DNA of 24,761 bases from a virus: positions 1-24,761 of the IMG/VR virus record IMGVR_UViG_3300020183_000438; one strand, written 5' to 3'. The position numbers were made by a program, and so were the translations under genes. Under the pieces are notes generated by a model that saw nothing but the letters and a program-made list of their open reading frames with translations, made no database searches and was not told the origin of the DNA. Shown here one piece after another: positions 5,248 to 24,244 of the stretch (the stretch's first letter is position 1; the number at the start of each line of letters is the position of its first letter).

Positions 5248-5811
5248 ATGGCACTCCCTATTACCATACCCAATACGTTTGCAACCGCTAACGCGGCAAT
5301 ACCGTTGTCTCAACTGGATAACAATTTCACCACAGTTGCGGGTGCAATCAATGGCATTGGCAACGGGGCAGAAGCCCTAACAAATGTTGAAATAACTGGT
5401 GGCGATCTAGCCAATGTTGTGCTGCAAAACCGCAACCGAGAGTTTGTCACGATTAACACTGGTGGTGCGGCCAACACAATCAACTATGACGTAAACACGC
5501 AACAAGTGCTGTTGTATACCGGCAATGCTACTGCGAACGTAACGCTCAATATTCGCGGCAACTCGTCGGCTACGCTCAACAATGTGATGGAGACTAACTC
5601 TTCGATCACGGTTGCTTTTGGCATGACAAGTAATGCCAATGCTCGTTACGTTAGCCTTGTCCAGATTGATGGCTCAAACGTCACACCCAAATGGCAGGGC
5701 GGCGCTCCGACCAGCGGTACTGCAAACAGTACAGAGTTTTATGTACTAAACACCATTAAAACTGGGGCAAACACTTACAGTGTGTTTGGTTCTAAGACAG
5801 CCTTTACATAA
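5248..5811 (+). CDS. Tail fibre or fibre-adaptor protein
   Basis: This 187-residue protein begins with LPITIPNTFATANAAIPLSQ and LDNNFTTVAGAINGI. This opening ('ITIPNTFA..tx.IPLSqLDxNF') is common at the N-terminus of phage tail-fibre proteins, where it fixes the fibre to the tail. The remainder is beta-rich with many Asn, Thr and Val residues (TNVEITGGDLANVVLQNRN). It is short for a complete fibre, so it may be an adaptor or a small spike. It lies between the nozzle and the large glycine-rich protein, with 9-base spacing to the latter, which suggests they work in one receptor-binding complex. Confidence 0.65.
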   Translation: MALPITIPNTFATANAAIPLSQLDNNFTTVAGAINGIGNGAEALTNVEITGGDLANVVLQNRNREFVTINTGGAANTINYDVNTQQVLLYTGNATANVTLNIRGNSSATLNNVMETNSSITVAFGMTSNANARYVSLVQIDGSNVTPKWQGGAPTSGTANSTEFYVLNTIKTGANTYSVFGSKTAFT

Positions 5812-5820
5812 GGAATAGCG

Positions 5821-8800
5821 ATGCCTGTTCTTTCTTCGCTTGCTTACGCCACAGCCAAAGCCTACGGGTTTGGTTTATTCCAAGCCGCTGGTGGCATAAC
5901 AGTCATCCAAACCTTTACTTCCTCGACCACATGGGTCTGCCCTGCTGGGGTAACGGAGGTTGAGTATTTGGTTGTTGCTGGTGGGGCGGGTGGAGGGCAT
6001 AACATTGGCGGGGGTGGCGGTGCTGGTGGCTTTAGAACAGGAACAGGGTTTGTTGTAACCGAAGGCACTTCTTATACAGTCACTGTTGGTGGTGGCGGTA
6101 CAGGCAGCAGTTCCTCCCCATCGGCTGCTGCTTCTAATGGCTCTGACTCCGTGTTTAGCACCATTACATCTACCGGGGGTGGAAGGGGTGGGAATGGAAC
6201 TCCAGCCAACTCAGCAAATGCTGGTGGATCGGGTGGTGGCGGCACCTATGTTGGTGGGTCAACTACAGGCGGAAACGGAAACACCCCATCGACATCGCCG
6301 TCGCAGGGAAGCAACGGTGGCAATGGAATAGCGTCAAATCCTTACTTTGGTGCTGGCGGTGGAGGTGGCGCTTCTGCTGTTGGTGGAAACGCTCCAGCAA
6401 GTGCGGCTGCAAATGCTGTTGGTGGCGCAGGAACAGCATCGTCTATTAGCGGTTCTTCTGTAACCTATGCAGGAGGTGGGGGTGGAGGTTCTCAGTCTCC
6501 CGGTTCGGCTGGTGCAGGCGGTGCAGGGGGAGGCGGTGCTGGGTCAACAACTACTAGCGCAACTGCCGGTACTGCTAATACGGGTGGTGGAGGTGGCGGA
6601 TGCGGCCCCAATGGGCCAAACTCAACAGGTGCAGCAGGCGGCTCTGGCATCGTAATCATCAAATACGAAGTAACTCCTGCTACGACTGTTGATGTTGTTC
6701 AGCAATTTACTGCATCTGGCACTTGGACTTGCCCGACTGGTGTGACCGAGGTTGAGTATCTCGTTGTCGCTGGTGGTGGTGGGGGTGGCTTAGGAAATAC
6801 CAACTGCGGGGGTGGTGGAGGAGCAGGGGGATACAGAACTGGAACTGGGTTTTCTGTAACCGCTGGAACTGATTACACGGTAACTATTGGTGCTGGCGGA
6901 GCAAATACCACCAATGGATCAAATTCTGTTTTTTCTACCATAACTTCTGCTGGTGGCGGGAAAGGTGGAACAGGTAACGCAGATGCGGGTGGAAGTGGTG
7001 GTTCTGGCGGCGGCGGAGGAGCACAAAGTGGAGGTGGTGGGACTGGAAACACTCCCTCGGTAAGCCCATCGCAAGGAAACAACGGCGGTGGCGGAAACAA
7101 TACGGGCTATTCCGCCGGCGGAGGTGGTGGCGCAGGCAGTGCCGGAGTTACTGCTGGAGGCGGATCTGGTGGCAATGGGGGAAATGGAGGGGCTGCGGGT
7201 GTATCTACTATCTCCGGGTCTTCTGTGTCATATGCCGGCGGCGGCGGAGGCGGGGTGGCGGGTAGCGGAACGGTTGGTTTGGGCGGTGGAACATCAACAA
7301 CTGCCGACAAGGGCGGTGGCGCCAACGGAGGCAAGAATGCTGTTGGCGGAACAGGAACGGCTAATACCGGCGGTGGAGGGGGCGGAGGTGGCGGACCCTC
7401 TGCTTTTAATGGTGGTCCCGGCGGCTCCGGGGTCGTGCTTCTTCGCTACGCAGTACCTTTATCGACAGTAGAGACATTCAAATCCTCGACCAAGTGGAAG
7501 CCTCCTGTTGGCGTGACCTCTGTTGACTACCTTGTGGTTGCGGGTGGTGCAGGGGGCGGTGGAACTGCGGCTGGTGGCCCCGGTGGTGGTGGTGGTGGAG
7601 GTGCTGGAGGATTTAGAACAGGTACTGGTCTTGCCGTTGCATCTACTACTGAATACACAATTACGGTTGGTGCGGGTGGTAATGGAGGAGCCGCTGGTGC
7701 GTCTGGGTCAAGTGGTGGAGATTCCACATTCAGCACCATTACATCTAACGGTGGCGGTGGAGGCGGTTATGGACAAGGCGGAGTAAACGGCCTTTCTGGT
7801 GGTTCTGGTGGGGGTGCTGGAAGTAAGAGCGGAACTGGAACTGGTGGCACCGGGAACACTCCTTCAACATCTCCATCACAAGGCAACAACGGTGGTGGTT
7901 TTACTGCACCAAATACCGGAGGTTCTAATGGTGGCGGAGGTGGTGGCGGAGCGTCAGCAGTAGGTGGGGGTGCTGCGAATGGTGCTAACGCTGGCGGAAA
8001 CGGTGGTGATGGCACAGCCTCTACTATTACTGGTTCGTCCGTAACTTACGCAGGCGGTGGAGGTGGGGGAGGAAACCCTGCTGGTACTGGAGGGGCCGGA
8101 GGTGGTGGAACAGGCTCAACTGCTGGAACCAACAACTCTACTACTGGAACTGCTAACCTTGGAGGGGGCGGTGGTGGTCAAGCATTGGCTTCTACGGCTG
8201 GAAAAGCAGGCGGCTCAGGAGTAGTCATCCTTAAATACCTTGCCAAGCCCAATTACCAAATCTTCCAAGCATCAGGCACATGGGTCTGTCCTACGGGTGT
8301 GACTGAAGTCGAGTACCTAGTCGTGGCTGGTGGTGGGGGTGGTGGTTGTGGCGGTGGCGGCGCTGGTGCAGGTGGTTACAGAACAGGCACGGGGTTTAGC
8401 GTCACAGCAGGAACTTCATACACAATTACGGTGGGTGGAGGAGGTGCTGGTGCTACCGCTACCAATGCCAAAGGAGTTAATGGTTCTGATTCGGTCTTTA
8501 GCACCATTACATCTACCGGAGGAGGTGGTGGGGGTTCTAATTTAAGCGCCGCAGGAGCAAACGGTGGGTCTGGAGGCGGTGGAGGCGTTTCTGCAAATAG
8601 TGGTGCCGGTGGTTCTGGTAACACACCATCAACAAGTCCATCTCAGGGAAATAATGGGGGTAATAACATTACAAGCCCTTCTTACGGAGGAGGAGGCGGC
8701 GGAGGAGCGGGTGGTGTTGGTAGCAACGGAACTGGCTCCGCTGGCGGGAATGGTGGCAATGGAACGGCATCTTCTATTTCTGGAATTTCAACCACATACG

Positions 8801-9012
8801 CTGGAGGTGGAGGAGGGGGCATTTTTGGAGGTTCACAACCAGCGGGGTCAGGAGGTAGTGGTGGCGGCGGTGGAGGAACAAATACCAATACAACTGGTAC
8901 TGCTGGCACTGTCAACACAGGCGGTGGCGGTGGCGGGGGCGGTCAGTCGAGTGGTGGTACAAATGGCAACGGCGGCACAGGCGGTTCAGGTATCGTGATT
9001 ATTCGTTGGTAA
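5821..9012 (+). CDS. Giant glycine-rich adhesin with four tandem modules
   Basis: A 1063-residue protein, the largest in the window. After a 28-residue leader come four modules at residues 29-282, 293-543, 549-806 and 812-1063. Each has the same order: a 'FxxSxTWxCPxGVTEVEYLVVAGG' opening, a Gly stretch with GGFRTGTG or GGYRTGTG, a beta strand pair (SYTVTVGGGG), a VFSTITSTGG strand, the spacer GNTPSTSPSQG, then SISGSSVTYAGGGGGG and a closing GGSGIVIIKY-like strand. Polyglycine blocks probably form polyglycine-II sheets, as known for some phage adhesins. Modules are joined by 5-10 residue linkers. Position in the fibre cluster indicates receptor binding. No enzymatic motif is visible. Opposite-strand proline-rich frames are mirror artefacts. 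Confidence 0.85.
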   Translation: MPVLSSLAYATAKAYGFGLFQAAGGITVIQTFTSSTTWVCPAGVTEVEYLVVAGGAGGGHNIGGGGGAGGFRTGTGFVVTEGTSYTVTVGGGGTGSSSSPSAAASNGSDSVFSTITSTGGGRGGNGTPANSANAGGSGGGGTYVGGSTTGGNGNTPSTSPSQGSNGGNGIASNPYFGAGGGGGASAVGGNAPASAAANAVGGAGTASSISGSSVTYAGGGGGGSQSPGSAGAGGAGGGGAGSTTTSATAGTANTGGGGGGCGPNGPNSTGAAGGSGIVIIKYEVTPATTVDVVQQFTASGTWTCPTGVTEVEYLVVAGGGGGGLGNTNCGGGGGAGGYRTGTGFSVTAGTDYTVTIGAGGANTTNGSNSVFSTITSAGGGKGGTGNADAGGSGGSGGGGGAQSGGGGTGNTPSVSPSQGNNGGGGNNTGYSAGGGGGAGSAGVTAGGGSGGNGGNGGAAGVSTISGSSVSYAGGGGGGVAGSGTVGLGGGTSTTADKGGGANGGKNAVGGTGTANTGGGGGGGGGPSAFNGGPGGSGVVLLRYAVPLSTVETFKSSTKWKPPVGVTSVDYLVVAGGAGGGGTAAGGPGGGGGGGAGGFRTGTGLAVASTTEYTITVGAGGNGGAAGASGSSGGDSTFSTITSNGGGGGGYGQGGVNGLSGGSGGGAGSKSGTGTGGTGNTPSTSPSQGNNGGGFTAPNTGGSNGGGGGGGASAVGGGAANGANAGGNGGDGTASTITGSSVTYAGGGGGGGNPAGTGGAGGGGTGSTAGTNNSTTGTANLGGGGGGQALASTAGKAGGSGVVILKYLAKPNYQIFQASGTWVCPTGVTEVEYLVVAGGGGGGCGGGGAGAGGYRTGTGFSVTAGTSYTITVGGGGAGATATNAKGVNGSDSVFSTITSTGGGGGGSNLSAAGANGGSGGGGGVSANSGAGGSGNTPSTSPSQGNNGGNNITSPSYGGGGGGGAGGVGSNGTGSAGGNGGNGTASSISGISTTYAGGGGGGIFGGSQPAGSGGSGGGGGGTNTNTTGTAGTVNTGGGGGGGGQSSGGTNGNGGTGGSGIVIIRW
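5905..6666 (+). repeat. Glycine-rich adhesin module 1
   Basis: Residues 29-282 of the adhesin. It opens with FTSSTTWVCPAGVTEVEYLV, contains GNTPSTSPSQGSNGG near residue 153 and closes with GGSGIVIIKYE. It shares the exact 16-base stretch at 6157-6172 (agcaccattacatcta) with modules 3 and 4. Confidence 0.85.
6697..7449 (+). repeat. Glycine-rich adhesin module 2
   Basis: Residues 293-543. It opens with FTASGTWTCPTGVTEVEYLV and has GNTPSVSPSQGNNGG near residue 409. The closing strand is GGSGVVLLRY. This is the module most diverged at the DNA level: the VFSTITS region reads with different codons (ttttctaccataacttct) from the other three. Confidence 0.83.
7465..8238 (+). repeat. Glycine-rich adhesin module 3
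   Basis: Residues 549-806. The opening strand differs in sequence (FKSSTKWKPPVGVTSVDYLV), with the first Cys of the other modules replaced by Lys. It carries GNTPSTSPSQGNNGG near residue 678 and ends in GGSGVVILKYL. The 16-base identity with modules 1 and 4 is at 7732-7747. Confidence 0.83.
8254..9009 (+). repeat. Glycine-rich adhesin module 4
   Basis: Residues 812-1063, ending the protein with GGSGIVIIRW. It opens with FQASGTWVCPTGVTEVEYLV and has GNTPSTSPSQGNNGG near residue 933. The 16-base identity with modules 1 and 3 is at 8500-8515. Confidence 0.85.
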
Positions 9013-9025
9013 ACAAGGAGAAAGA

Positions 9026-9274
9026 ATGAATCAAGCACAGATATACAGGTTGTACGGTATCAACACAGCGATGGAAATGCTCCGTCCCGGTGCTAAATGG
9101 GAAATCTCTAATCGAATGATTACGAGATGGGATGACCCACGCCCATGCCCGACATGGGAAGAAATTGATGCCACGATGGAGAAGATCAAAGCGTTTGAAG
9201 ATTCCATCACTACAGTCTGGCTACCTGAGCAATATGCCGAACTCACGGGGCAACCTAAGAAAGAAGCCGCATGA
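9026..9274 (+). CDS. Small tail-fibre-associated protein, possible fibre chaperone
   Basis: This 82-residue protein follows the adhesin gene with an AAGGAG site. The segment RPGAKWEISNRMITRWDD followed by RPCPTWEEIDATM resembles the 'xWxDxxxPxPTxEEI' motif found in short proteins and fibre tails encoded next to phage fibre genes (XkdW-like or fibre-assembly-like). It may help the adhesin fold or form part of its tip. Its stop overlaps the next start (ATGA). The function is inferred from motif and position. Confidence 0.55.
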   Translation: MNQAQIYRLYGINTAMEMLRPGAKWEISNRMITRWDDPRPCPTWEEIDATMEKIKAFEDSITTVWLPEQYAELTGQPKKEAA

Positions 9275-9882
9275 TTCATAACCTATTCCCCATCCCAGTC
9301 GGCATCTACAAGTTAGACCGTGACCTGACCGAAAAAGAGATTGACTTCATCAAGGGCCAAGAGACTCGCCCGAACATGGGCAATGTCACCTCTAAGGACA
9401 ACACGATCCTACGCAACCGTGCCTTGACCAAACTGCGTGACTTCATTGAGTCGAGCGTTTCTGACTACTTCAAGACCATCCACAACCCCAAGCACAATGT
9501 AAACCTACGCATTACGCAATCGTGGTGCAATTACACCGAACCGGGGCAGTTTCATCACAAACACGCCCATCCCAACTCATTTGTCTCTGGTGTGTTCTAC
9601 CCACAGGCCAATCGGGAGACAGACAAGATTTACTTCTATCGTTCTGGCTTCCAACAGATCAAATTACCTCCTGAGAACTGGAATGTCTGGAACTCGGAGT
9701 CGTGGTGGTTTGAGGCGGGTACTGGAGACTTGATTCTGTTTCCGTCGAGTCTTGAGCACATGGTCGAAACGGTGCAGGGCGACCAGACCCGCATCAGTCT
9801 TTCTTTTAATACTTTCCCACTAGGAGTGGTCGGTGAGGAAATGGACTTAACTGGTCTTAAACTTGAATCTATTAAGGAGTAA
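9271..9882 (+). CDS. 2OG-Fe(II) oxygenase-like protein
   Basis: A 203-residue protein that fits the phage-type 2-oxoglutarate/Fe(II) oxygenase family (2OG-FeII_Oxy_5-like). Visible signatures: the metal-binding region FHHKHAHPNSFVSGVFYP with the HxH pair at His98 and His100, the distal His163 in SSLEHMVE, and Arg174 in the TRISLSFNTF strand that would bind 2-oxoglutarate. The first metal position is thus HxH rather than the classical HxD, a variant I associate with this subfamily. Such enzymes hydroxylate protein or small-molecule substrates in the cytosol; the substrate here is unknown. Placed in the fibre cluster and coupled to the preceding gene by ATGA, it may modify a virion protein. Confidence 0.8.
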   Translation: MIHNLFPIPVGIYKLDRDLTEKEIDFIKGQETRPNMGNVTSKDNTILRNRALTKLRDFIESSVSDYFKTIHNPKHNVNLRITQSWCNYTEPGQFHHKHAHPNSFVSGVFYPQANRETDKIYFYRSGFQQIKLPPENWNVWNSESWWFEAGTGDLILFPSSLEHMVETVQGDQTRISLSFNTFPLGVVGEEMDLTGLKLESIKE

Positions 9883-9885
9883 TTC

Positions 9886-10263
9886 ATGGCACATTTTGCC
9901 CAACTTGATGACAACAACGTGGTGACGCAAGTCATTGTCGTTGGTAATTCTGATACCGCTGACGCAAACGGCGTGGAAAAGGAGCATATCGGTGCTGCTT
10001 TCTGCGAGAAACTCTTTGGCGGAAACTGGAAACAGACCTCTTACAACGGGTCAATCCGTAAGAACTACGCTGGCATCGGCTACACCTACAACGAGGACAT
10101 TGATGCGTTTGTGCCTCCCAAACCTTTCCCATCTTGGCTACTGAACAACGAGACTGCCCAATGGGAAGCCCCTGTTGCAATGCCGACTGAGGGTATGTGG
10201 CGGTGGGATGAGGATGCTGGTGAGTGGGTAGAAGTTGAAATGGAGGTTCAAGATGGGAATTAA
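9886..10263 (+). CDS. Conserved phage protein of the 'RKNYAGIGYTY' type
   Basis: This 125-residue protein starts with MAHFAQLDDNNVVTQVIVVG and contains QTSYNGSIRKNYAGIGYTYN then DAFVPPKPFPSW. I recognise this set of motifs from many cyanophage and other aquatic phage proteins near tail or fibre genes; no function is established that I know of. It is Trp and acidic rich at the C-terminus (MWRWDEDAGEWVEVE). The ATG follows AAGGAG. It overlaps the start of the next gene by 11 bases. Probably a structural or fibre-associated protein. Confidence 0.6.
   Translation: MAHFAQLDDNNVVTQVIVVGNSDTADANGVEKEHIGAAFCEKLFGGNWKQTSYNGSIRKNYAGIGYTYNEDIDAFVPPKPFPSWLLNNETAQWEAPVAMPTEGMWRWDEDAGEWVEVEMEVQDGN
10242..10246 (+). 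promoter_or_regulatory. Ribosome binding site fixing the start at 10253
   Basis: GGAGG lies 6 bases before the ATG at 10253 and within the end of the preceding gene. An earlier in-frame ATG at 10235 has no such site, so 10253 is the better start. Confidence 0.65.
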
Positions 10264-10607: not shown

Positions 10608-11351
10608 ATGCTCAAGGCGTTAGGTGGTGTAGCAGGCGGGGGTGGCGTAGGCGCTGTCACTTACAAAGGCACTTGGAATGCCGCTACAAACACGCCTACG
10701 CTGGTATCAAGCACTGGCACTCAGGGCGACTACTACGTTGTCAATGTGGCTGGTAGCACTAACCTCAATGGAATTACCGACTGGGCCGTAGGCGATTGGG
10801 CTATTTTCAATGGCTCCGTGTGGGAGAAGGTCGATAACACTGACGCGGTAAGTAGCGTCAACGGGCAGGTCGGAACGGTGGTTTTGACGGCTGCCAACGT
10901 GGGTGCTGCAGCCAATACGGTTGAGATTATTGCTGGGGTTGGGCTGGACGGCGGTGGAAACCTGGCTGTCAATGTCACGATTGACTTGGCTAACACGGCT
11001 GTAAGTCCCGCAACCTATGGGGACGCAAACAATGTGGCTCAATTTACTGTTGATGCCCAAGGGCGCCTAACCTCTGCTGCCAATGTTGCTATTAGCATAT
11101 CCACAGCCAATGTCACTGGCTTGGGTACTATGGCGACTCAGAACGCCAATGCAGTAGCAATTACTGGTGGAAATGTGGCTGTAACCAATGTTTCAGCCTC
11201 AAACGTAACAGTAACCGCTAACTTGTATGCAAACCTTGCTACGGCTAACACGGCTGCTATGCCTGATCCCAGTCTGCCATTGAACCCTGAAGGTTATGTT
11301 TCGGTGGTAATTAATGGTGCAACCAAAAAAATTCCTTATTACGGAGTGTAA
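10608..11351 (+). CDS. Tail fibre protein with VNGQVGTVVL motif
   Basis: A 247-residue protein with clear tail-fibre signatures: TYKGTWNAATNTPTL and GDYYVVNVAGST (the short 'cap' domain common in fibres), GDWAIFNGSVWEKVDN, then SSVNGQVGTVVLTAANVGA, a repeated fibre-shaft motif. A second shaft motif follows (FTVDAQGRLTSAANVAI). The Ala, Asn, Thr and Val rich C-terminus is a probable triple-beta shaft. The ATG has an AAGGAG site. It likely joins the host-recognition apparatus with the glycine-rich adhesin. Confidence in the class is high; the exact receptor role is unknown. Confidence 0.8.
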   Translation: MLKALGGVAGGGGVGAVTYKGTWNAATNTPTLVSSTGTQGDYYVVNVAGSTNLNGITDWAVGDWAIFNGSVWEKVDNTDAVSSVNGQVGTVVLTAANVGAAANTVEIIAGVGLDGGGNLAVNVTIDLANTAVSPATYGDANNVAQFTVDAQGRLTSAANVAISISTANVTGLGTMATQNANAVAITGGNVAVTNVSASNVTVTANLYANLATANTAAMPDPSLPLNPEGYVSVVINGATKKIPYYGV

Positions 11352-11575: not shown

Positions 11576-11919
11576 GCCTTAACATGGACGCCCTGGCAAC
11601 CCCTATCTTTGGGGAGCCAGACAGCCTTAGAGACTTCCTCTTTGAGAATGGCATCCAGCATCAAGTCTTCTGTGAGCGTCTGACTGACGCTGGTTTTAGC
11701 GTCCCACGCTACCCTCTTATTGACGCCGATCCTCAAGACCTAGACGATTGGTTGCAAATACATCAACTTGAACACCAACGCTTTGCTACAATCCTTAACT
11801 TGAATGATCCATTTAACTTGCTCGACTTGGACTTCAACCAGGAGGATGACTTTTATGATTGGGTAAACAGTCATCTGTTAATCCATGAACAAATAGCAAG
11901 ACGCTTGGGGGTGACATGA
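11572..11919 (+). CDS. Triple-repeat His/Asp-rich protein of unknown function
   Basis: A 115-residue acidic protein built from three related helical units at residues about 18-37, 57-76 and 93-112. The units read SLRDFLFENGIQHQVFCERL, LDDWLQIHQLEHQRFATIL and FYDWVNSHLLIHEQIARRL, sharing 'hxDWh..H..iH...a..L'. Each unit has His residues spaced four apart in the second and third copies. I recognise similar short repeat proteins beside phage fibre genes but no function. It overlaps both neighbours by ATGA, so it is likely made together with the acyl carrier protein. Links to acyl chemistry are inference only. Confidence 0.6.
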   Translation: MSLNMDALATPIFGEPDSLRDFLFENGIQHQVFCERLTDAGFSVPRYPLIDADPQDLDDWLQIHQLEHQRFATILNLNDPFNLLDLDFNQEDDFYDWVNSHLLIHEQIARRLGVT

Positions 11920-12209
11920 TTTCTGATGAAGACTTTATTCGATTATTCAACGCCTGCGCCACACTAGCCAAGACTCCAACCAACCCGCCCATTGCGGCAG
12001 GATCACTGGATGATCTTTTCCCCGACTTAAACATTGACAGCCTGGATGCCTTGATACTTGGCATGTACCTGTGCGATGCGTTTGGGGTGCCGGAAGAGAT
12101 TGGCAAGACCATGCAGGTGCGCTCTGTAGGCGATACAAAGGCTTTTTTGGTAGCCAATACAACCGTAAAGTCGATTGACGTTGATAAAGTCATAGAAGGC
12201 TTCAAATGA
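11916..12209 (+). CDS. Acyl carrier protein
   Basis: A 97-residue acidic protein with the acyl carrier protein pattern. Residues 34-54 read LFPDLNIDSLDALILGMYLC, with the Asp41-Ser42-Leu43 motif where a host phosphopantetheinyl transferase would attach the prosthetic group. The following hydrophobic helix, then AFGVPEEIGKTMQVRSVGDTKAFL, matches helices II and III and the 'tVgD...y' ending of the family. The N-terminal helix (ISDEDFIRLFNACATLAKT) fits helix I. Length is a little over the usual 75-85. It is joined by ATGA to the ketosynthase gene downstream and to the triple-repeat gene upstream, the arrangement expected for an enzyme and its carrier. Alternative: a non-functional ACP-like fold; the adjacent ketosynthase argues against it. 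Confidence 0.85.
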   Translation: MISDEDFIRLFNACATLAKTPTNPPIAAGSLDDLFPDLNIDSLDALILGMYLCDAFGVPEEIGKTMQVRSVGDTKAFLVANTTVKSIDVDKVIEGFK

Positions 12210-13333
12210 GCCTCTTTCTCGCCTATGGAAATACTTTTACAGGGCACGAAACCACCCTTTTAGACGAAATAATGTACCCCCAGAGGGTCATCTGGGACCC
12301 CCAAACGTACTCAAAAACCAAGTCTGGTTTTGTCTACGTTCCGCATTTAATGGTTTCCAAAGTCCTCCCCGCCGACAAAAAATTTTCGGTTTTTCGGGAA
12401 AACCCTAGTATTGGGAAGACTGCATTTATCTTGGCGTCTGGCTCTTCAAACTTCGCTGGTGCCAGCCCGAGGAACAATCAGAACCACACTAGGCTGTTTT
12501 ACAACTACAAACCGCTGCCGTTGACCCTTACAAACGTCTATGCCGGTCGGATAGCCAATCAGATATGCCAGCCAGACTACGTGGCTACGGACGCCACTGC
12601 CTGCGTATCCAGCCTTAAAGTGCTAATGGATTGCCTGATGCTAGAAAAGTACGGGTTTACTCGCTTTTATATCGTTTCAACCGAAGACCAGGTAAGCAAT
12701 ACCACCCTGGAGTTTTTTGGGGAAGCCAATGCAAGCCTGACAAAGAAAAGAGAAGACGAAGAAAACATCGTGCCAAGCGCATTTGATAGCGTAAATGGCG
12801 GGTTTTACGTGGGCCAAGGCGCTGTTTTTTCTGTTTTTGTGACCGAAAAAGAAGCGCAACATCTTGGGATTACCCCCAAGGCTAGGCTGTTGTCTGCCTA
12901 CCATTGCGCTGAAACATCGGGCAATGCCATAGGGCAGAGAGAAGATGGCAAGGGATACTCTGATGCAATAGATGGGGCGTTAACTTATGGTCAAGTTCAT
13001 GCAAGTGAAATCACTATTGTTAAGACTCATGGCACGGGAACTAAATCAAACAACGCCTCGGAGAAGGCTGGGTTACAAAAATCGCTTAAAGACTTCGTAG
13101 CAACGTCTTACAAACAAAAAATAGGGCATACGATGGGCGCTTCGGGGTTGTTAGAAACCCTACTTTTGCTTGACAATTTGGCGTATGGTGTTGTACCAGG
13201 AATAGCCAACAGGACCGAGAAGGACGATGTTTTCTTGTCTGAAGACTGTGAGGCGCCTGATGGCTTGGTGTTGAGTGTAGCAGCGGGAATGGGCAATGTT
13301 TACTCTGCCGCTATCTTTGAACCTGTGAGGTAA
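12206..13333 (+). CDS. Beta-ketoacyl-ACP synthase (FabF/FabB-like condensing enzyme)
   Basis: A 375-residue thiolase-fold condensing enzyme. Catalytic residues are all present: nucleophile Cys133 in DATACVSS, His275 in KTHGTGTK, Lys303 and His308 in YKQKIGHTMGASG. Spacing (Cys to first His 142, first to second His 33, Lys five before His) closely tracks E. coli FabF (Cys163, His303, Lys335, His340). Flanking landmarks also fit: NVYAGRIANQ before the Cys, YVGQGAVFSVFVTEKEAQHLG in the middle (FabF VLGDGAGMLVLEE), and a closing AAGMGNVYSAAIF where FabF has GFGGTNGSLIF. The two-His set means decarboxylative condensation on ACP-bound malonyl rather than the KASIII type. The N-terminal region is about 30 residues shorter than FabF and diverged. 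No partner reductase or dehydratase lies in the window. Confidence 0.93.
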   Translation: MSLFLAYGNTFTGHETTLLDEIMYPQRVIWDPQTYSKTKSGFVYVPHLMVSKVLPADKKFSVFRENPSIGKTAFILASGSSNFAGASPRNNQNHTRLFYNYKPLPLTLTNVYAGRIANQICQPDYVATDATACVSSLKVLMDCLMLEKYGFTRFYIVSTEDQVSNTTLEFFGEANASLTKKREDEENIVPSAFDSVNGGFYVGQGAVFSVFVTEKEAQHLGITPKARLLSAYHCAETSGNAIGQREDGKGYSDAIDGALTYGQVHASEITIVKTHGTGTKSNNASEKAGLQKSLKDFVATSYKQKIGHTMGASGLLETLLLLDNLAYGVVPGIANRTEKDDVFLSEDCEAPDGLVLSVAAGMGNVYSAAIFEPVR

Positions 13334-21694: not shown

Positions 21695-22071
21695 TGTTTG
21701 ACCCGTTGAGCGTCGCTGCCATCTTCGGCCCATTGGCGGTCGAGGCAGGCAAGGCTGTTATCAACAAGTACATTGCACCTGCTGAGTTTAAGCCTGCAAC
21801 CATAGACCAGTACGTTCAGATGCGTGAGGTTGACTTACGCATGTTTGAGGCCATGAATAACGCTGGTGGCTCCAATCCATCTTACCCATGGGTGGATGCC
21901 ATTGTGCGCCTCATGCGCCCCACCGTGGCTGTCATAGTCTTGGGCACTTGGGCGTGGAGCAAGTTGGCTGGCTTTCCATCAGAGTCGATTGATAACTTTG
22001 CCGCTGCCATAGGGTTCTACCTCTTTGGTGATCGCACCCTGTTCTATGCCCGTAAAGGGATGCAGAAGTAA
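21694..22071 (+). CDS. Holin of the three-segment (GTA/holin_3TMs) type
   Basis: This 125-residue protein has an N-terminal hydrophobic helix (PLSVAAIFGPLAVEAGKAVI), a central polar helix, then membrane segments at about 67-88 (VDAIVRLMRPTVAVIVLGTW) and 99-112 (IDNFAAAIGFYLFGDR). The 'RLMRPTVAV' and 'AAIGFYLFGDRTLFY' blocks match the holin family PF11351 (from memory). Its stop overlaps the endolysin ATG by one base, the classical holin-endolysin order. It would permeabilise the inner membrane at the end of the late phase. No spanin gene was recognised nearby. Confidence 0.82.
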   Translation: MFDPLSVAAIFGPLAVEAGKAVINKYIAPAEFKPATIDQYVQMREVDLRMFEAMNNAGGSNPSYPWVDAIVRLMRPTVAVIVLGTWAWSKLAGFPSESIDNFAAAIGFYLFGDRTLFYARKGMQK

Positions 22072-22442
22072 TGGACTGGGCCAGGTTTCCAAACTTTAAG
22101 GAGTCGGAGTTTACCTGCCGCCATTGTGGGAAGGTGGAGATGAACGATGATTTCATGTTCCGCTTGCAGACCCTTAGAACCCGCTATAACAAGCCCATGA
22201 CCATCACTTCAGGGTATCGGTGCAGACAGCACCCTGTGGAGGCTGTGAAGGCTTCTGCTGGCCCCCATAGCACTGGCAAGGCTGTTGACATAGGGGTGCA
22301 GGGTGCCGATGCCCACCGTCTTCTTTCTCTTGCGCTTGACCTTAATTTTAAAGGTATTGGAGTGCAACAGAAAGGTGACAAACGGTTCTTGCATATTGAT
22401 GATGTTAGTGAAGGCTCACGACCTACTGTTTGGAGTTACTGA
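22071..22442 (+). CDS. Endolysin, peptidase M15A (D,D-/L,D-endopeptidase type)
   Basis: A 123-residue M15A peptidase. The motif TSGYRCRQHP (residues 46-55) and the zinc site GPHSTGKAVDIG with His66 and Asp73 are present, as is the third ligand His108 in FLHIDD, with Asp110/111 near the catalytic position. The family cuts peptide cross-links in peptidoglycan. Length is that of the compact catalytic domain with no extra cell-wall binding domain. A Cys-rich N-terminal FTCRHCGK is typical for this family. It is coupled to the holin gene (TAATG), so lysis timing would be shared. Confidence 0.9.
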   Translation: MDWARFPNFKESEFTCRHCGKVEMNDDFMFRLQTLRTRYNKPMTITSGYRCRQHPVEAVKASAGPHSTGKAVDIGVQGADAHRLLSLALDLNFKGIGVQQKGDKRFLHIDDVSEGSRPTVWSY

Positions 22443-23288: not shown

Positions 23289-23496
23289 AATATCGGCTGT
23301 TTATTAAACCGATAATCTCACCGGCTGCCAGCGCAGCAGTCTGATCGTCTCCCATGACCATCTTGGCTACTACGCTACCGTCACGGTCTAGTATTTTGAT
23401 TGCACCAGGGTCTAACTTCACAGCCCATGGCGTCCTCAACTGGTCAGCCAGCCACTCTCTTTCTCTTGTTACTGTTTCGTGCCACTCTTGATCCAT
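23287..23496 (-). CDS. Small hypothetical protein, minus strand
   Basis: A 69-residue protein read leftward, with GGAG 7 bases ahead of its ATG. It begins MDQEWHETVTREREWLADQL and has IKILDRDGSVVAKMV and AAGEIIGLINSRY at the end, a short beta-helix pattern typical of small phage proteins. It overlaps the end of the glycosyltransferase gene by 53 bases, more than usual in this window. No function is recognised. Its stop lies against the terminator T-run. Confidence 0.5.
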   Translation of the reverse strand: MDQEWHETVTREREWLADQLRTPWAVKLDPGAIKILDRDGSVVAKMVMGDDQTAALAAGEIIGLINSRY

Positions 23497-24244
23497 TTTC
23501 GCTCTCCATTGTTGTAGGTTCAGGCGTCGGTATTAGTGTTCCCTCAAACAGGTAGGAACCCATGTGACCCAGTTGGCACCAAGGCGCTGCATACACTTTG
23601 CCCCCTGCTTTGCGCCACTTGTGGCAGAAGTCATAGTCTTCGCTTAAAAGACGGCCTGTCTCTTTGTCTATCGGCACCCCAAAAAATTCATGGATTTCCT
23701 CTCCATGGGCCATGGCACTCATATCGTTTTTGAAGACCTTAACCTTCTTCTTTAACTTCTCTAGTACGTGGCGCTTAATTAGCATGAAGCCAGTGCCCAG
23801 GGCAGCCACCTCGCATGGCTCATCCCGCTTGACCACAACGCTGCCGTTGGTCGGATTGATGAGATTGACCACAAACGATCCGGTAAAGTTTTGCAGATTG
23901 TCCTTGTCCTTCTTGGCTGCTTCCTTAACCATGGTCCAGTTGATTTCCTTCTTTGGGTAGATGCCGCCAATAACATCCTTGTCGGCTACCAACATCCGCA
24001 GAGCGTCTTCAGACCTGAACTTAATATCTGCGTCGATCCAAAACAGATAGTCGGCCTCACTTTTTAGGAACTGGTGGGCCATGTTATTCCTGGCCCGTTG
24101 GATCAGTGACTCATTAAACATAAAGGCGCATGAGACTTTGTGCCCCAGGGAAGAGAAGTGTCCTGTCATTGATAGCAAGGACTGAACGTAGTGTCCTGTA
24201 GCCATTCCTCCATACATGGGAGTGCAAACCATAATGTGTGCCAT
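23444..24244 (-). CDS. GT-A family glycosyltransferase
   Basis: This 266-residue protein has a GT-A pattern: N-terminal strand MAHIMVCTPMYGG, the metal and nucleotide-sugar site DAD (Asp71-Ala-Asp73 in LFWIDADIKF), a GTGFMLIKR segment at 150-158, and LSEDYDFCHKWRKAGGKVYA (200-219) with Asp/Glu residues where the catalytic base and acceptor loop usually sit; a His near residue 227 (QLGHMGS) fits the C-terminal metal ligand. Such phage enzymes resemble Anp1/GT2-like proteins and may glycosylate DNA bases, virion proteins or host surface sugars; the substrate is unknown. GAGG lies ahead of the ATG. It is on the opposite strand to the late genes, so it is probably expressed separately. The C-terminal 20 residues are basic and overlap the next gene. 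Confidence 0.82.
   Translation of the reverse strand: MAHIMVCTPMYGGMATGHYVQSLLSMTGHFSSLGHKVSCAFMFNESLIQRARNNMAHQFLKSEADYLFWIDADIKFRSEDALRMLVADKDVIGGIYPKKEINWTMVKEAAKKDKDNLQNFTGSFVVNLINPTNGSVVVKRDEPCEVAALGTGFMLIKRHVLEKLKKKVKVFKNDMSAMAHGEEIHEFFGVPIDKETGRLLSEDYDFCHKWRKAGGKVYAAPWCQLGHMGSYLFEGTLIPTPEPTTMESENGSRVARNSNKRKRVAG

What the first reader, a model, noticed from the sequence alone, without database searches (positions are those of the whole stretch)
5821..9012. Four-module glycine-rich adhesin
Four modules of about 255 residues keep the same order of strands, polyglycine blocks and a constant GNTPSxSPSQG spacer while DNA identity varies. Exact 16-base identities shared by modules 1, 3 and 4 (6157, 7732, 8500) could drive recombination and module gain or loss. 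Module 3 replaces the first Cys with Lys, and its opening strand differs most, hinting at different receptor specificity. Such a protein could change host range by module number.
Basis: partly seen in the sequence, partly recalled or inferred. Interest (0 to 1): 0.65.

Follow-up and report, generated by a model that had tools for sequence, protein, structure and literature searches.

The report
Phage adhesin with swappable module bodies
A freshwater phage's probable host-binding protein is four copies of one known glycine-rich domain in a row, and in its relatives the inner part of each copy is exchanged between phages and between positions at two fixed seams while the rest of the protein stays put, a domain-sized version of the swapping long known in the tail-fibre tips of T-even phages.

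Summary
ORF 5821-9012 (1063 aa, 36% Gly) has four modules of 253-259 aa, each a Pfam Gly_rich_2 domain (E 2e-97). A confident AlphaFold2 model of module 1 matches the TNF-like plus glycine-rich tip of cyanophage Pam3 fibre gp24 and a Bxb1 tail-tip protein (Z 15.8 each). The protein follows a conserved anchor gene and is probably the receptor-binding adhesin (inferred). The highlighted 16-mers are near chance, and module 3 has Pro, not Lys, at the Cys site. Its odd opening strand is a trait of position 3 that most relatives share, so it does not suggest a new receptor. Relatives show real recombination elsewhere. In seven phage pairs module bodies are replaced between similar flanks, with breaks at YLVVAGG and GGSG. 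In six cases the same body sits behind a different opening strand. In ten 4-module genes the opening strand's nearest relative is at the same position 40/40 times; the body's only 5/40. Module number varies (1-4, mostly 2), with one good case of 2-to-1 loss. The closest known process is T-even gp38, where conserved motifs swap adhesin specificity; this is a domain-scale tandem variant. That module number sets host range remains untested.

The parts
5248..5811 (+). Anchor protein (187 aa): residues ~1-60 conserved in relatives whatever adhesin follows; residues ~65-187 form a second domain found when a gene with the docking peptide follows
   Evidence: phrog_5906
5821..9012 (+). Adhesin: N-terminal docking peptide plus four Gly_rich_2 modules
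5821..5880 (+). Docking peptide MPVLSSLAYATAKAYGFGLF; similar MP...(Y/F)GF-type start seen in all 33 distinct genes that directly follow the anchor's C-terminal domain, including non-module adhesins (counted by eye)
5899..6666 (+). Module 1 (256 aa)
   Evidence: AF2 pLDDT 89.5 for residues 1-282
6691..7449 (+). Module 2 (253 aa)
7462..8238 (+). Module 3 (259 aa); opening strand of the position-3 type
8248..9009 (+). Module 4 (254 aa)
5959..5985 (+). N-side seam of module 1 (VEYLVVAGG); equivalents 6751-6777, 7522-7548, 8308-8334
   Evidence: breakpoints in relatives map here; position in window
6637..6666 (+). C-side seam of module 1 (GGSGIVIIKY); equivalents 7420-7449, 8209-8238, 8980-9009
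   Evidence: position in window
6154..6176 (+).
9026..9274 (+). 82-aa protein (phrog_21526), directly downstream of the last module gene in relatives; possible small chaperone, only a sub-threshold XkdW match
9271..9882 (+). 2OG-Fe(II) oxygenase (PF13759), often part of the adhesin cassette
9886..10263 (+). 125-aa protein (phrog_7759), nearly always in the same cassette

Best explanation
This is the phage's receptor-binding adhesin. It plugs through a short N-terminal peptide into the C-terminal domain of the anchor gene product (5248-5811) and carries four tandem TNF-like plus glycine-rich modules as beads on a string. Each module has a position-specific frame (opening strands up to YLVVAGG, and the closing strand GGSGIVIIKY) and an exchangeable body of about 200 residues with the glycine lattice and variable loops. 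Co-infecting related phages exchange bodies by homologous recombination in the conserved seams, so receptor specificity can be reshuffled while the frame and the plug still fit; unequal exchange at the seams occasionally changes module number. SHOWN: modules, fold of one module, cassette neighbourhood, position-locked frames, body replacement and transplantation, breakpoint positions, one module loss (all exchanges in relatives). INFERRED: receptor binding, docking, receptor contact by the loops, homologous recombination as the mechanism.
For: Four Gly_rich_2 domains. Module model pLDDT 89.5, pTM 0.85, matching Pam3 fibre gp24 (7ypx_A Z 15.8, rmsd 3.5 over 193; 7yfw_a Z 15.5) and Bxb1 tail tip (9d93_Qb Z 15.8, rmsd 3.1 over 181), then LTK/ALK at Z 7.7 or lower. 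Pam3 gp24's glycine-rich domain has a conserved stem and a hypervariable tip proposed to bind the host (PMC9608196). Genes placed after the conserved anchor are swapped among phages with nearly identical capsids. Body replacement between flanks of 84-99% identity with inner identity 0.50-0.61: seven pairs, N break -12 to +14 nt from the GG of YLVVAGG, C break -7 to +27 nt from GGSG. Six body transplants behind dissimilar opening strands, e.g. L086 m3/4 = L098 m1/4 (body 99% aa, opening strand 52%). In ten 4-module genes: opening strand nearest neighbour at same position 40/40, body 5/40; body identity same vs different position 0.410 vs 0.407. The four Gly columns of 68 with the highest synonymous identity are residues 247, 28, 248 and 30, at the seams. 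L202 one-module gene flanked by 94-95% identity to two-module relatives. Anchor domain and docking peptide co-occur 33/33.
Against: No exchange is demonstrated in the window's own gene; all events are in relatives. No direct test of receptor binding or virion location. ML breakpoints may be drawn to conserved motifs, and C-side breaks of the transplants scatter more (up to +167 nt), as does one N-side break (+126). Bodies may also diverge fast, which alone could erase the positional signal (but not produce the transplants). All relatives used are metagenome contigs, so some near-100% cases could be assembly chimeras. The full-length model failed (pLDDT 48.9), so the module arrangement is unknown. 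The seam-glycine test set was chosen after the breakpoints were known and columns are not independent.
Confidence: 0.75

Rival explanations
1. No special exchange: bodies simply diverge fast under selection while the frames are constrained, so positional signal is lost only from bodies.
For: Body identity is uniformly about 0.41 (non-Gly) regardless of position; loops are expected to evolve fast; synonymous sites between window modules are nearly saturated.
Against: L153/L154 flanks are 99% identical while the body is 50% identical with indels; near-identical bodies sit behind different opening strands and at different positions.
Confidence: 0.07
2. Assembly chimeras: short identical glycine-coding stretches let assemblers join different phages, creating apparent swaps and losses.
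For: All relatives are metagenome contigs; Gly codon runs are repetitive; L088 carries a broken reading frame in a gene that is intact in L089.
Against: Transplanted bodies at 82-92% DNA identity (L090/L099, L127/L136, L178/L215) have diverged since the exchange, which chimeras would not show. Frame/body uncoupling holds across ten distinct phages. The window's module order is recovered identically in contigs of two metagenomes, L082 and L003 (as far as L003 reaches).
Confidence: 0.1
3. A structural spacer or virion decoration protein, not the receptor binder; the tandem modules only extend the tail or stick non-specifically.
For: Gly_rich_2 domains occur widely; no binding data; another tail-like gene (10608-11351) lies downstream.
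Against: Position after an anchor whose downstream partner is swapped for LamG-like or other fibre genes in near-identical phages, body hypervariability, and the Pam3 gp24 match fit a receptor-binding role.
Confidence: 0.12
4. Intragenic recombination between the window's own modules is the main driver.
For: M1-M4 share 23 nt (P=0.033); M1-M2 and M3-M4 codon identity slightly above chance (P=0.01, 0.006).
Against: Number of 16-mers is near chance (P=0.13); best within-record body identity is 69%, so no recent copying between modules of one genome was seen; breakpoints lie elsewhere.
Confidence: 0.05

Closest known systems
Cyanophage Pam3 tail fibre gp24 (PDB 7ypx, 7yfw)
   Same: TNF-like plus glycine-rich domain, conserved glycine stem with hypervariable distal tip proposed to bind the host; Z 15.8 to module 1
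   Different: One such domain per chain behind a long helical trimerisation shaft; the window protein has four in tandem, only ~26 residues before the first module, and no gp25-like chaperone found by sequence
T-even phage gp38 adhesins (T2, S16, PP01)
   Same: Hypervariable segments between conserved glycine motifs; recombination at conserved motifs swaps adhesin specificity (Tetart et al. 1998, known here from its citation in PMC6027323); polyglycine II lattice with receptor loops (PMC12892980)
   Different: gp38 exchanges short segments within one small domain; here whole bodies of ~200 residues are exchanged among tandem TNF-like modules with position-locked frames; no gp38 family match in Pfam or PHROGs
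Mycobacteriophage Bxb1 tail-tip protein (PDB 9d93 chains Qa/Qb)
   Same: Same fold, Z 15.8 over 181 residues
   Different: One stretch of ~230 residues is seen in the chain; host and backbone unrelated
ALK/LTK TNF-like/glycine-rich (TG) domain
   Same: Related TNF-like plus glycine-rich arrangement, Z up to 7.7
   Different: Animal receptor kinase domain; Z is in the range where only a shared arrangement can be claimed

Membership tests
Pfam PF21722 Gly_rich_2 | Whole-protein score above the curated cut-off (24.3 bits) | tested here: met
   326 bits, four stretches
TNF-like + glycine-rich tail tip fold (Pam3 gp24 type) | Beta-sandwich with inserted glycine lattice, close structural match | tested here: met
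   Module 1 model, Z 15.8/15.5 to 7ypx/7yfw
TNF-like + glycine-rich tail tip fold (Pam3 gp24 type) | N-terminal helical bundle and trimeric assembly | tested here: inconclusive
   Only ~26 residues precede module 1; a helix 4-14 appears at low confidence in the full-length model; oligomer not modelled
TNF-like + glycine-rich tail tip fold (Pam3 gp24 type) | Dedicated Tfa-like chaperone gene (gp25) next to it | tested here: inconclusive
   Downstream 9026-9274 and 9886-10263 show no PDB or above-threshold Pfam match to a chaperone
T-even gp38 adhesins | Sequence family match (Pfam or PHROGs) | tested here: not met
   No gp38 family listed at E up to 0.01
T-even gp38 adhesins | Recombination at conserved glycine-flanked motifs exchanges variable parts | tested here: met
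   Works alike, in relatives of the window:
Polyglycine II lattice proteins | Glycine strands in PG-II conformation packed hexagonally | tested here: inconclusive
   Glycine stretches are confident coil in the model and align with solved glycine lattices; dihedral angles were not available
Phage receptor-binding proteins | Binds a host receptor | not testable with these tools
   Needs binding or adsorption assays

The most novel reading that the evidence does not exclude
A combinatorial adhesin system: a widespread family of aquatic phages keeps a fixed multi-position chassis and plug while drawing module bodies from a shared pool, with the two seams kept alike at synonymous sites because they serve as recombination sites. 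A tandem adhesin would then display several unrelated specificities at once, and one exchange would alter one of them.
Probability: 0.35. Interest if true: 0.75.

Novelty: new variant of a known kind. Interest (0 to 1): 0.55.

Why it matters
It makes domain-scale specificity swapping in uncultured aquatic phages directly testable from sequence: the seams, the pool of bodies and the frames can be read off any contig. It separates what stays with the phage (frame, plug, anchor) from what moves (bodies), which matters for predicting hosts of uncultured phages and for reading tail-gene diversity in metagenomes.

Tried and rejected
tblastn of the full protein against cultured phages found nothing, probably because the low-complexity filter hides it; anchors and neighbours were used instead. 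The full-length AlphaFold2 model with ten sequences failed. The downstream 82-aa and 125-aa proteins gave no usable fold or chaperone match; the 9gzg hit is a designed repeat protein with no counted domain. The first module tree grouped M2s and M4s by position; cutting modules into edge and body showed that this signal comes from the edges. L088/L089 (broken frame) and L166/L168 (truncated edge) were listed by script as transplants and discarded. Apparent 3-module hits in edge-truncated contigs (L084, L102) are cut 4-module genes and were not counted. A link between the 2OG oxygenase and the adhesin (e.g. proline hydroxylation of GNTPSxSPSQG) was considered; the enzyme is often but not always in the cassette, so it is left as an idea. 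Literature search found no description of tandem Gly_rich_2 exchange, but the library lacks most subscription papers.

Full report
OBSERVATION. The ORF at 5821-9012 is real: 1063 aa, 36% glycine, four modules of 253-259 residues with 58-69% protein and 56-62% DNA identity. Each is a Pfam Gly_rich_2 domain. GNTPSxSPSQG occurs once per module. The modules are old copies. At the Cys position M3 has Pro; the Lys is one residue earlier.

FOLD. A 97-sequence alignment of modules gave a confident model of residues 1-282 (pLDDT 89.5, pTM 0.85). It matches the Pam3 fibre gp24 and a Bxb1 tail-tip protein at Z 15.8 each, then the ALK/LTK TNF-like/glycine-rich domain at Z up to 7.7. [quoted passage not shown] The 4-module protein could not be modelled as a whole.

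SURROUNDINGS. The window is a whole IMG/VR record of 24,761 bases. Among contigs whose capsid protein is 89-100% identical, the gene after the anchor is a 4-module gene, a 2-module gene, or an unrelated fibre, e.g. a LamG-like 679-aa protein in L254 (capsid 99%, tail gene 95%) ('LamG-like' is my reading of the sequence, not a database match). The anchor's first ~60 residues are kept throughout; its C-terminal domain (residues ~65-187) is present when the next gene starts with an MP...(Y/F)GF-type peptide, in 33 of 33 distinct cases counted by eye, including non-module adhesins. I read this as plug and socket. Downstream, an 82-aa protein, often a 2OG oxygenase, and a 125-aa protein travel with the module gene across phages with unrelated backbones, including the lake phage genome DSL-LC04 (metagenome-assembled, PMC10611076); relatives of the small proteins lie near a one-module gene in the cultured cyanophage S-SSM5.

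MODULE NUMBER. Directly upstream of the 82-aa gene, distinct complete module genes have 1, 2, 3 or 4 modules in 3, 56, 1 and 11 cases. Two-module genes have a first opening strand like positions 1-2 and, in many cases, a second like position 3 of the 4-module genes. One good case of number change within a lineage is L202: a single module whose left side follows module 1 and whose right side follows module 2 of two-module relatives, with 94-95% identical flanks.

EXCHANGE OF BODIES. L153 and L154 are 99.2% identical over 4.7 kb, then drop to about 50% inside one module, return to 97-98%, and drop again inside the first module of the next gene. A systematic search found seven such replacements; two-breakpoint fits put the N break -12 to +14 nt from the GG of YLVVAGG and the C break -7 to +27 nt from GGSG in all seven. 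Conversely, six bodies of 89-100% protein identity sit behind opening strands of only 0.30-0.61 identity, sometimes at another position (L086 m3/4 and L098 m1/4; L090 m2/4 and L099 m4/4). Their breaks scatter more, and several have diverged to 82-92% DNA identity since, which argues against assembly artefacts.

FRAME VERSUS BODY. In ten 4-module genes the opening strand's closest relative in another gene is at the same position 40 times of 40; the body's is 5 of 40. Mean non-glycine identity for same versus different position is 0.684 vs 0.440 for opening strands (0 of 2000 permutations) and 0.410 vs 0.407 for bodies (408 of 2000). Hence M3's unusual opening strand marks a position. Most class members share it (L096 is an exception and the L090/L099 class has its own set). 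Of 68 glycine columns in 200 diverse modules, the four with the highest synonymous identity are residues 247, 28, 248 and 30, the two seams (nominal P 1.5e-4, for a set chosen after the breakpoints were known). Overall the seam excess is modest (1.20-1.25 vs 1.09 in the body).

MECHANISM. Best reading: a receptor-binding adhesin whose module bodies are exchanged between related phages by homologous recombination at conserved seams, leaving frame, plug and anchor intact. Exchange and breakpoints are shown in relatives; receptor binding and the recombination pathway are inferred. In T-even phages recombination between conserved motifs swaps gp38 adhesin specificity (Tetart et al. 1998, cited in PMC6027323), so the principle is known; the domain scale, the tandem chassis and position-locked frames are the variant. 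I found no earlier description, within an open-access library that lacks most subscription papers.

LIMITS. All events come from metagenome contigs of relatives; none is in the window's own gene. The counts are small, and some pairs may be non-independent. Host range by module number was not testable.

Noticed in passing
11916-13333: An ACP-like gene (PP-binding, just below cut-off) directly followed by a beta-ketoacyl-synthase gene (C-terminal domain well above cut-off); the pair is conserved in many capsid relatives.
   Followed up: partly
9271-9882: 2OG-Fe(II) oxygenase inside the adhesin cassette in many but not all relatives; in cyanophage S-SSM5 (L300) the homologous small genes also lie among 2OG-oxygenase, leprecan-like and PF05721 genes. 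Possible modification of the adhesin.
   Followed up: partly
L254:3715-6284: Closest backbone relative (capsid 99%, tail gene 95%) carries a LamG-like 679-aa adhesin in place of the module gene: whole-gene replacement behind the same anchor N-terminus.
   Followed up: yes
L069:6409-7458: An anchor fused to a glycine-rich C-terminal region in one reading frame, suggesting fusion of anchor and adhesin.
   Followed up: no
L153:222-7000; L089:5947-10913: Some relatives carry two or three module genes in tandem (2+3+2, 2+4), so gene number varies as well as module number.
   Followed up: partly
L088:3994-7304: The 4-module gene intact in L089 is split by a frame change in L088; sequencing error or real, not decided.
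   Followed up: no
22071-22442: Peptidase M15 gene, a likely endolysin.
   Followed up: no
23444-24244 (-): Glycosyltransferase-like gene on the opposite strand (weak Anp1 match below cut-off).
   Followed up: no
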